Source: Candidatus Saccharibacteria bacterium HGW-Saccharibacteria-1
Lineage (GTDB): Bacteria > Patescibacteriota > Saccharimonadia > Saccharimonadales > Saccharimonadaceae
Length of the DNA: 64,000 nt
Assembly: GCA_002839415.1 (NCBI GenBank)
Contig: PGXZ01000002.1
Location: 66,098-130,097, forward strand
Direction: 5' to 3'
Made by a program: the position numbers and the translations under genes. Positions 47,241 to 50,569 of this stretch are shown in pieces (within the stretch, counting starts at the first letter, position 1; every line of letters begins with the position of its first letter). The notes below the pieces were generated by a model. It had not been told where the DNA came from and ran no database searches. It saw nothing but the letters and a program-made list of their open reading frames with translations.

Positions 47241-47370
47241 TGTCTTATGCTACACAATTTGTTGTAATTTGTAAACCGCATAATAAAATTTGCGATGTTT
47301 ATATTATGTATTGTTTATGGAAAATGCTTGTGTTAATATCGATTTAACTTAAAGGATGATTAGATTAAAA

Positions 47371-48234
47371 ATGAAAAACAAAAATGTTCGTTTAGCTCGT
47401 GGGTTTACAATCGTAGAGCTCCTAATAGTCATAGTAATAATAGGCATCCTAGCTGCCATAGTAATAGTATCCTACATAGGACTATCCAAAAAAGCCACCG
47501 AAGCTAGTCTAACCTCAGACCTGGACGGAGCTAAAAGACAACTAGAACTATACAAAACAGAACATGAAACATATCCAACAACAATGGATGCAAATAAATG
47601 TCCAACCGACCCTAGCCTGAAGCTGACTAGATCAGACATTACGTTTGAAGTAACTAGTGATAACGTGCCTATGACTGCGGTTGCCGTTGATCCTGATTGG
47701 GTCTCTATTGGTACACAAAAGTGGGCCAAGGCTAACTTAGATGTAGGCATAATGATAGCTGGAGTAACTACACAGACTGATAATTCAATTGTTGAAAAAT
47801 ATTGTTATGATAATGACGAAGCAAACTGTACAACTTACGGGGCACTTTATCAATGGGACGAGGCTATGAACTATGGAGATTCTGAAAAAGCTCGGGGTAT
47901 TTGTCCGGTTGGTAGCCATATTCCGAGTGATGATGAGTGGAAGATACTCGAAATATATCTTGGAATGACACAGGAGCAGGCTGATGCGGAAGGCGATCGG
48001 GGCACTGACCAGGCCGTGCAGATGAGAACTGGCGGAACTTCTGGATTGAATGTTCTTTCTGGTGGTTACGTGGCTTTCGGCGGTTTTTCTAACCTTTCTT
48101 GGGTCACTAGTTTATGGTCAAGTGCCGGTGTTTATTCGTATAATTACTTTCGTCAAATTACTCCTGGCGAAACAGTATATCGACATCAGGCAGATAGCTC
48201 CTTTGGCTTTTCGGTACGATGTCTAAAGGACTAA
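47371..48234 (+). CDS. Type IV pilin-like protein with C-terminal FISUMP-type domain
   Basis: RGFTIVELLIVIVIIGILAAI prepilin motif; TQKWAKANLDVG...YGALYQWDEAMNYG...RGICPVGSHIPSDDEWKILE...FGFSVRCLKD; ORF track start 47356 also possible. Confidence 0.82.
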   Translation: MKNKNVRLARGFTIVELLIVIVIIGILAAIVIVSYIGLSKKATEASLTSDLDGAKRQLELYKTEHETYPTTMDANKCPTDPSLKLTRSDITFEVTSDNVPMTAVAVDPDWVSIGTQKWAKANLDVGIMIAGVTTQTDNSIVEKYCYDNDEANCTTYGALYQWDEAMNYGDSEKARGICPVGSHIPSDDEWKILEIYLGMTQEQADAEGDRGTDQAVQMRTGGTSGLNVLSGGYVAFGGFSNLSWVTSLWSSAGVYSYNYFRQITPGETVYRHQADSSFGFSVRCLKD

Positions 48235-49691: not shown

Positions 49692-49711
49692 ATAGTTTAT
49701 GTCCAAATGTG

Positions 49712-49740
49712 TTGACTTAATGTCAAATACGTGCTAATAT
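49712..49740 (+). promoter_or_regulatory. Sigma70-type promoter of the structured RNA
   Basis: TTGACT (49712-49717) - 17 nt - TAATAT (49735-49740). Confidence 0.75.
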
Positions 49741-49746
49741 TGGTTC

Positions 49747-49996
49747 TAGTTGGTTACATTGCGAGATTAACCAAAAGTACCTTATACCCCCTATTCTAAC
49801 TTATGTTAGGTTCTATGCAATGTGTTATGAGGTCGACTACCCTCCATCCTCATGACTATATAGCATTGCATAGATACTAACCCCTTTAACCACGGACATC
49901 TGCGATTGAATCGAGATAGTTGCGCATACCCCCGGGTGGGTTAAAGGGTAAAATGGTGCCCACAGCGATGCCCACCCTTGCTGTGGGCACTTTTTT
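49747..49996 (+). ncRNA. Unidentified structured noncoding RNA, about 250 nt, with own promoter and intrinsic terminator
   Basis: Helices: 49750-49756/49768-49774; 49796-49800/49805-49809; 49812-49822/49864-49874 (11 bp perfect) enclosing 49824-49832/49848-49856; 49882-49891/49939-49948; terminator at 3' end; no convincing ORF. Confidence 0.75.
49956..49996 (+). terminator. Intrinsic terminator of the structured RNA
   Basis: GTGCCCACAGC-gatgcccaccctt-GCTGTGGGCAC + TTTTTT, 11-bp perfect stem. Confidence 0.95.
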
Positions 49997-50017: not shown

Positions 50018-50046
50018 TTGACATTTAGTACAATTTATGTTACACT
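50018..50046 (+). promoter_or_regulatory. Sigma70-type promoter for the 50099 gene
   Basis: TTGACA (50018-50023) - 17 nt - TACACT (50041-50046). Confidence 0.6.
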
Positions 50047-50098
50047 TAATATTGCGTGTAGTGATGAAGATAGTGTAACTTAAAAATGGAGGTGGAAA

Positions 50099-50569
50099 AT
50101 GATAGAAAGTATCACTTTCCTCGTAGGGGACTTCCTCTACATCTTACTGCCTGTCCTAATTGTTGCTGCTACCGTTTTCACTATGATTAGCTGGAAGCGA
50201 CAGCAGTACGGCCGCTGGGGCTTATCTGCCCTTGCGTTAGGTGGTATTGTTGCATTTGCCGCGACGTATGTTGGGACACTTAATGGTGTTTCATTGACGT
50301 TCGGTGCGTTTAATTTTGGTGCTGTTGCTATAGTTGGTGCTTTTATCGTGTCAAGCTATGCATTTGTTGCCTTGGTTAAGTTTTTAGATAAAGTTTCTGG
50401 GGTTCTGACCGAGTATATCGAGGAAAGAGCCGAAGCGCAGGAAGCTAGAATAAAACTTGATCATGAGAGAGAAGCAATTCGACAGAAAATGGAAGGGATT
50501 GATAAGCAAATTGAAGCAACCGAGGCTAAACTTAAGAAAAGAGACCTCATTAAGCGGATAGTTTCTTAA
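50099..50569 (+). CDS. Small polytopic membrane protein with C-terminal coiled coil, unknown function
   Basis: 156 aa, ~3 TMs plus EERAEAQEARIKLDHEREAIRQKMEGIDKQIEATEAKL; SD ggaggtgg. Confidence 0.75.
   Translation: MIESITFLVGDFLYILLPVLIVAATVFTMISWKRQQYGRWGLSALALGGIVAFAATYVGTLNGVSLTFGAFNFGAVAIVGAFIVSSYAFVALVKFLDKVSGVLTEYIEERAEAQEARIKLDHEREAIRQKMEGIDKQIEATEAKLKKRDLIKRIVS

What the first reader, a model, noticed from the sequence alone, without database searches (positions are those of the whole stretch)
49700..49996. Orphan structured RNA with its own promoter and terminator, possibly a cis-regulatory switch
Between dprA (minus) and the gene at 50099 (plus) lies a complete transcription unit with no convincing ORF. 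It has TTGACT-17-TAATAT, then helices 49750-56/49768-74 (TTGGTTA/TAACCAA), CTAAC/GTTAG, an 11-bp perfect TCTATGCAATG/CATTGCATAGA arm enclosing a 9-bp arm, a 10-bp CCCTTTAACC/GGTTAAAGGG arm, and an 11-bp terminator with T6. I cannot match it to tmRNA, RNase P, SRP, a tRNA-like RNA or a riboswitch I know. 6S RNA cannot be excluded, but the ends do not close on each other.
Basis: partly seen in the sequence, partly recalled or inferred. Interest (0 to 1): 0.8.

Follow-up and report, generated by a model that had tools for sequence, protein, structure and literature searches.

The report
Saccharibacteria-wide RNA reused by phages
The window holds a previously undescribed non-coding RNA of about 250 letters that almost every Saccharibacterium carries once, and whose three invariant C-rich pieces recur in many phage genomes, pointing to an unknown cellular partner that both host and phage RNAs bind.

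Summary
In detail: 49747-49996 (+) is an autonomous transcription unit with an extended -10 promoter, a strongly folding RNA (z = -6.5) and an intrinsic terminator. It matches no Rfam family. A covariance model finds it, essentially as a single copy, in 256/295 genomes of the order (37 families) and in none of 265 other Patescibacteria; named hits are Saccharibacteria. 37 of 46 pairs show compensatory changes. It lies between dprA and pth; the downstream gene (50099) is not conserved, so cis-regulation is unlikely. tmRNA and RNase P lie elsewhere. Three C-rich modules sharing URCCCNCC are near-invariant: M1 ACCUUAUACCCCC, M2 loop CUACCCUCC, M3 terminator loop UGCCCACCC. Unexpectedly, phages carry them: M1+M2 as stand-alone mini RNAs in four phages or prophages, and M3 as a hairpin with phage-specific complementary stems in about 50 IMG/VR contigs, in two versions matching the host lineages' two versions, often at transcript starts or before scaffold/capsid genes (reversed-pattern control: 3 hits against 38). 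Best explanation: an order-wide multivalent RNA that binds a conserved trans-acting factor, with phage RNAs using the same binding modules. Partner, expression and phage hosts are unproven.

The parts
49712..49740 (+). Promoter: -35 TTGACT, 17-nt spacer, extended -10 TGC-TAATAT
   Evidence: Sequence; -35 TTGAC invariant and TGCTA core invariant in 24 aligned relatives
49747..49996 (+). The structured RNA (start inferred from the -10 box; end at the T-run)
   Evidence: z = -6.5; R1 covariance model hit at 1.4e-69 in own genome and in 256/295 genomes of the order; covariation
49750..49774 (+). P1 hairpin UUGGUUA/UAACCAA
   Evidence: 7/7 pairs with changes on both sides, 95.4% of cells paired
49779..49796 (+). 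Module M1, single-stranded ACCUUAUACCCCCUAUUC
   Evidence: Strict form in 52/72, loose form in 62/72 relatives; also in phage mini RNAs
49796..49809 (+). P2 hairpin CUAAC/GUUAG; GUUAG can instead pair with CUAAC 49877-49881 (P2')
   Evidence: P2 345/350 and P2' 347/350 cells paired
49812..49874 (+). P3 long hairpin UCUAUGCAAUG/CAUUGCAUAGA
   Evidence: 11/11 pairs with changes on both sides, 97.1% of cells paired
49837..49845 (+). Module M2, apical loop of P3, CUACCCUCC
   Evidence: TACC(C)TCC in 70/72 relatives; in phage mini RNAs
49882..49948 (+). P4 arm CCCUUUAACC/GGUUAAAGGG with inner helices
   Evidence: 8/10 pairs with changes on both sides, 97.5% of cells paired
49956..49996 (+). Intrinsic terminator GUGCCCACAGC/GCUGUGGGCAC with U6
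   Evidence: Sequence; inner stem 4/4 and outer stem 5/5 pairs covary
49965..49981 (+). Module M3, terminator loop GCGAUGCCCACCCUUGC
   Evidence: TGCCCACCC in 66/72 relatives; once in own genome at up to 1 mismatch of the 15-mer; hairpin with other stems in about 50 viral contigs

Best explanation
49747-49996 encodes a new trans-acting structured RNA that is a near-universal single-copy core RNA of the order Saccharimonadales. Shown: its own promoter and terminator signals, a covarying fold, order-wide distribution, three near-invariant C-rich modules (shared core URCCCNCC: M1 UACCCCCU, M2 UACCCUCC, M3 UGCCCACC), and recurrence of M1+M2 and of M3 in phage genomes as separate small RNAs or leader hairpins with unrelated stems. 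Inferred: the modules are binding sites for a conserved trans-acting partner (an RNA-binding protein or a ribosome-associated factor). The host RNA displays several sites at once and so stores or titrates that partner, much as CsrB does for CsrA or 6S RNA for RNA polymerase. Phages put the same site at the start of, or inside, their own transcripts (often just before scaffold/capsid genes) or make mini RNAs, to recruit the partner or pull it off the host RNA. Because GUUAG can pair with either of two CUAAY strands, binding may be coupled to a P2/P2' rearrangement (inferred).
For: Order-wide, single copy, no cis gene. Covariation in stems with near-invariant loops. Phage mini RNAs with M1+M2 on unrelated stems. 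M3 17-mer in 38 viral contigs against 3 for the reversed pattern; 34 of those 38 plus L059 with at least 4 extra complementary stem pairs, all phage-specific, against 1.9% at random; -10-like box within 22 nt upstream in 20/39 against 9% at random. Second lineage version of the host loop in 17 other viral contigs, 16 with stems. M3 hairpins precede scaffold and major head genes in unrelated phages. One prophage holds M1+M2 and M3 as two RNAs.
Against: No expression data and no partner identified. Phage hosts are inferred from the shared motif; no prophage with M3 was found in 393 Saccharimonadales genomes, and one carrier is a prophage in an actinobacterium. The loop part of phage M3 was imposed by the exact-pattern search. 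The g2 group has lost M1. Antisense pairing could also explain C-rich loops.
Confidence: 0.5

Rival explanations
1. RNAIII-like antisense regulator: the C-rich loops base-pair with G-rich Shine-Dalgarno regions of several mRNAs and block translation; phages carry extra copies to redirect host translation.
For: Three C-rich loops, as in S. aureus RNAIII loops 7, 13 and 14 (PMC2837412). M2 resembles an anti-SD; in the g2 group it reads ACCUCC.
Against: 7-mers complementary to M2 and M3 are not enriched at 532 start regions (3 against 10.0 and 5 against 12.5 expected; upstream regions are AT-rich, so depletion itself proves little). Many genes look leaderless. Loops are invariant across 37 families, whereas antisense seeds drift with targets. 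M3 placed in phage leaders in the same sense as the host RNA does not fit pairing to SDs.
Confidence: 0.18
2. Functional analogue of 6S RNA (or of mycobacterial Ms1): it binds RNA polymerase and tunes transcription.
For: Abundance-type promoter and near-universal single copy; no 6S found over cut-off in the genus or in the sampled order members.
Against: No RF00013 match; not one long hairpin with a central bubble, and the ends do not close. The C-rich loops do not resemble an open promoter.
Confidence: 0.1
3. M3 is only an efficient terminator or 5'-protective hairpin used independently by host and phages, and the RNA itself has some unrelated function.
For: In the host and in 9 of the M3 viral cases the hairpin is followed by a T-run; many phage hairpins sit at the 5' end of transcripts.
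Against: The loop, not the stem, is invariant; the pattern occurs once in the host genome, so it is no general terminator; M1+M2 are also shared with phages; the loop version tracks the host lineage.
Confidence: 0.12
4. Cis-regulatory leader or riboswitch of the gene at 50099.
For: It lies 103 nt upstream of that gene on the same strand.
Against: Complete terminator before the gene; the gene was not found at relatives' loci while the RNA persists, and what lies downstream varies.
Confidence: 0.03

Closest known systems
CsrB/CsrC-type sponge RNAs
   Same: Several copies of a short recognition motif displayed in loops and single strands of one structured RNA
   Different: Motif is C-rich URCCCNCC, not GGA; three non-identical near-invariant modules; partner unknown; modules recur in phages
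Staphylococcus aureus RNAIII and UCCC-loop sRNAs
   Same: Several conserved C-rich hairpin loops in one trans-acting RNA (PMC2837412)
   Different: No sequence relation shown; order-wide loop invariance; no enrichment of complements at start regions
6S RNA / Ms1
   Same: Single-copy, constitutive-looking, lineage-wide RNA
   Different: No RF00013 match and different architecture
Large orphan structured RNAs such as OLE, GOLLD and ROOL
   Same: Big, conserved RNA of unknown function without Rfam match to known roles (comparison from general knowledge)
   Different: About 250 nt; order-wide single copy; separable modules shared with phages
Phage leader elements such as put and boxB/nut sites
   Same: Short hairpin with fixed loop and variable stem near the start of phage transcripts (comparison from general knowledge)
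   Different: The same loop is part of a host chromosomal core RNA and its version tracks the host lineage

Membership tests
Any Rfam 15 family | Match at gathering score | tested here: not met
   0 matches in the window; best sub-threshold matches 12-20 bits
6S RNA (RF00013) | Covariance-model match | tested here: not met
   No hit at this locus; none over cut-off in 20 genus genomes
6S RNA (RF00013) | Single long hairpin with central bubble and closing ends | tested here: not met
   Separate P1, P3, P4 and terminator helices
6S RNA (RF00013) | Binds RNA polymerase | not testable with these tools
   Needs biochemistry
tmRNA (RF00023) | tRNA-like ends and tag reading frame | tested here: not met
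   ARAGORN finds none; the genome's tmRNA is at G000:C21:31303-31717
RNase P RNA (RF00010) | Covariance-model match | tested here: not met
   The genome's RNase P RNA is at G000:C21:28156-28498
SRP RNA (RF00169, RF01854) | Covariance-model match / helix 8 motif | tested here: not met
   No match at this locus; genome-wide search of the genus negative but B. subtilis control also missed
RNAIII-like C-rich-loop antisense sRNA | Several exposed C-rich hairpin loops | tested here: met
   M1, M2, M3
RNAIII-like C-rich-loop antisense sRNA | Complementary targets at ribosome-binding sites | tested here: inconclusive
   No enrichment at 532 start regions from many genomes; own genome not scanned as a whole
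CsrB-type sponge RNA | Repeated short recognition motif in loops | tested here: met
   URCCCNCC in three modules, motif derived here by inspection
CsrB-type sponge RNA | GGA loops binding CsrA | tested here: not met
   Loops are C-rich
Cis-acting riboswitch/leader | Conserved downstream gene | tested here: not met
   50099 gene not found at relatives' loci; downstream gene varies

The most novel reading that the evidence does not exclude
Saccharimonadales possess a previously unknown core regulatory RNA whose three C-rich modules are the recognition code of an unknown essential factor. Their phages have detached these modules and use them, in host-lineage-matched versions, as leader hairpins and mini RNAs to capture that factor for capsid gene expression: a host-phage RNA mimicry system in the Candidate Phyla Radiation.
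Probability: 0.4. Interest if true: 0.93.

Novelty: categorically new. Interest (0 to 1): 0.82.

Why it matters
Saccharibacteria are ultra-small obligate epibionts with reduced genomes, and no regulatory RNA of theirs turned up in the papers searched. A near-universal, single-copy, strongly covarying RNA implies a core function that has escaped annotation. Its modules also give a sequence handle on phages that probably infect this hard-to-culture group (M3 in two lineage-matched versions), and point to a shared trans-acting factor that could be fished out with one biotinylated hairpin. 'Categorically new' refers to the RNA family and the host/phage sharing of its modules; the proposed way of working (multivalent binding) is of a known kind.

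Tried and rejected
Rfam at gathering and relaxed thresholds gave nothing credible. tmRNA, RNase P and 6S were each tested and excluded for this locus. SRP RNA was searched as a possible missing housekeeping RNA; neither SRP model hit the genus, but B. subtilis was missed too, so no conclusion. Antisense to host SDs showed no enrichment. A pseudoknot of GGGUGGG (P4) with the CCCACCC terminator loop was considered: it is perfect in the window, but relatives change GGGUGGG to e.g. GAGGUGC while the loop stays, so rejected. INPHARED phages hold no close copy of the RNA or the hairpin. Viral hits L239, L240 and L266-L268 look like chance matches inside coding sequence. No viral relatives of the L059 prophage terminase were found. 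Apparent second M3 copies in G138 and G719 lie at contig ends and are treated as assembly splits. Literature searches found no description of this RNA. A first alignment (A1) mixed strands and was discarded.

Full report
Observation. No tRNA or tmRNA and no Rfam family is present. The RNA folds far better than shuffles (z = -6.5).

Conservation. blastn finds the element in 136 of 199 genomes of the same family, 44 of 61 genera. The alignment shows an invariant -35 TTGAC, a nearly invariant extended -10, and a terminator. A covariance model built from 22 sequences (R1) finds it in 256 of 295 genomes of the order, 124 of 143 genera, in families across f1-f37, almost always once per genome. Across the phylum all 22 matching genomes are in the order and none of 265 outside has it. 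Only three genomes of the class outside the order were sampled. A motif scan of 85,462 species gives 91 loci, nearly all titled as Saccharibacteria or as unnamed bacterial MAGs.

Structure. On 76 distinct sequences, 93.2% of pair cells are standard pairs and 37 of 46 pairs have changes on both sides; the covariation score is 0.488 against 0.155 in shuffles and at most 0.092 in slid controls. The alignment was fitted to this model, so the counts lean towards it, but P1, P3, P4 and the terminator stem all covary. GUUAG (49805-49809) pairs equally well with CUAAC upstream (P2, 345/350) and CUAAY downstream (P2', 347/350): a candidate conformational switch (inference).

Surroundings. The RNA lies between divergent dprA (topA beyond it) and convergent pth (der beyond it) in most families. 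The window's downstream gene 50099-50569 has no Pfam match and was not found at the relatives' loci. dprA is decayed or not detected beside the RNA in some genomes where the RNA remains. The RNA is therefore autonomous, and its position looks inherited rather than a sign of cis control. tmRNA and RNase P are encoded elsewhere.

Invariant modules. Against covarying stems, three C-rich stretches barely change across the order: M1 ACCUUAUACCCCC(N)AUUCUAAC, M2 the P3 loop CUACCCUCC (TACC(C)TCC in 70/72), M3 the terminator loop UGCCCACCC (66/72). They share URCCCNCC (seen by inspection). M3 has two lineage versions: GYGAUGCCCACCCUURC in families f1 and f26, and AGYGGUGCCCACCCCCUCU in most of the other families looked at. 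The g2 group has lost M1 and has M2 as UACCUCC.

Phages. A scan of IMG/VR for M1 gave L147 and L148, and later patterns gave L265 and L269. L147, L265, L269 and the prophage L059 are mini RNAs of about 110-130 nt with M1, P2 and a P3-like hairpin that carries M2 and also serves as terminator; L148 holds the full host-type RNA. The exact 17-mer GTGATGCCCACCCTTAC is in 38 viral contigs, while the same pattern read backwards is in 3. 34 of those 38, and L059, have at least 4 further complementary flanking pairs with differing stems, against 1.9% at random positions; several of these contigs are close relatives of each other, so they are not all independent. 20 of the 39 have a TATAAT-like box within 22 nt upstream (most 4-10 nt from the hairpin) against 9% at random, and 9 are followed by a T-run. 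The second lineage version occurs in 17 further viral contigs, 16 with stems. The hairpins commonly precede SD-led genes; where identified these include head scaffolding protein followed by major head protein, head maturation protease, terminase and replication initiation. Among 397 genomes searched in the Antrihabitans phylum only Antrihabitans itself has the pattern, inside an integrase-, portal- and terminase-bearing region of about 46 kb with GC near 0.53 in a chromosome of about 0.63. That prophage carries M1+M2 and M3 as two separate RNAs.

Interpretation. Shared loops on unrelated stems, in host and phage, in matching lineage versions, are best explained by a trans-acting factor that recognises the loops (inference). 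The host RNA would then be a multivalent ligand or store of that factor, and the phages use the site in cis or as mini RNAs. An RNAIII-like antisense role has precedent (PMC2837412), but loop complements are not enriched at 532 start regions. A 6S-like role cannot be excluded functionally, but family membership is not met.

Limits. No expression data; partner unknown; phage hosts inferred from the shared motif only; E-values from R1 are rough; start sites were assigned mechanically; viral hits were found by exact patterns, so their number is a lower bound and their loop invariance is partly imposed by the search (the stems are not).

Noticed in passing
L059 3780-4900 (G686:C1, about 994-1040 kb): A prophage in the actinobacterium Antrihabitans carries both the M1+M2 mini RNA and a separate M3 RNA of Saccharibacteria type. 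Actinobacteria are the usual hosts of Saccharibacteria; how the phage came by these RNAs is unexplained.
   Followed up: partly
532 ORF starts in L056-L146 and the window: TATAAT-like boxes lie at -17 to -3 of the ATG in 173 of 532 starts (63 in a control stretch) against 43 with an SD core (9 in control), suggesting many leaderless mRNAs in Saccharibacteria.
   Followed up: partly
G000 and 8 genus relatives: Neither small (RF00169) nor large (RF01854) bacterial SRP RNA was found; B. subtilis was missed by both as well, so absence is not shown.
   Followed up: partly
L015 1336-1500 and L017 1440-1500: Insertions of about 165 and 60 nt in the P2 loop of the RNA; the L015 insert is flanked by an inverted repeat GTGAACTTACCGC/GCGGTAAGTTCAC, so P2 seems to tolerate structured extensions.
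   Followed up: no
window 47356-48234 (+): A protein with a type IV pilin-like N-terminal methylation motif (PF07963) fused to a Fib_succ_major domain (PF09603).
   Followed up: no
window 50030-50083: Another inverted repeat (GTTACACTTA ... TAGTGTAAC) lies between the RNA terminator and the 50099 gene; it is outside the RNA.
   Followed up: no
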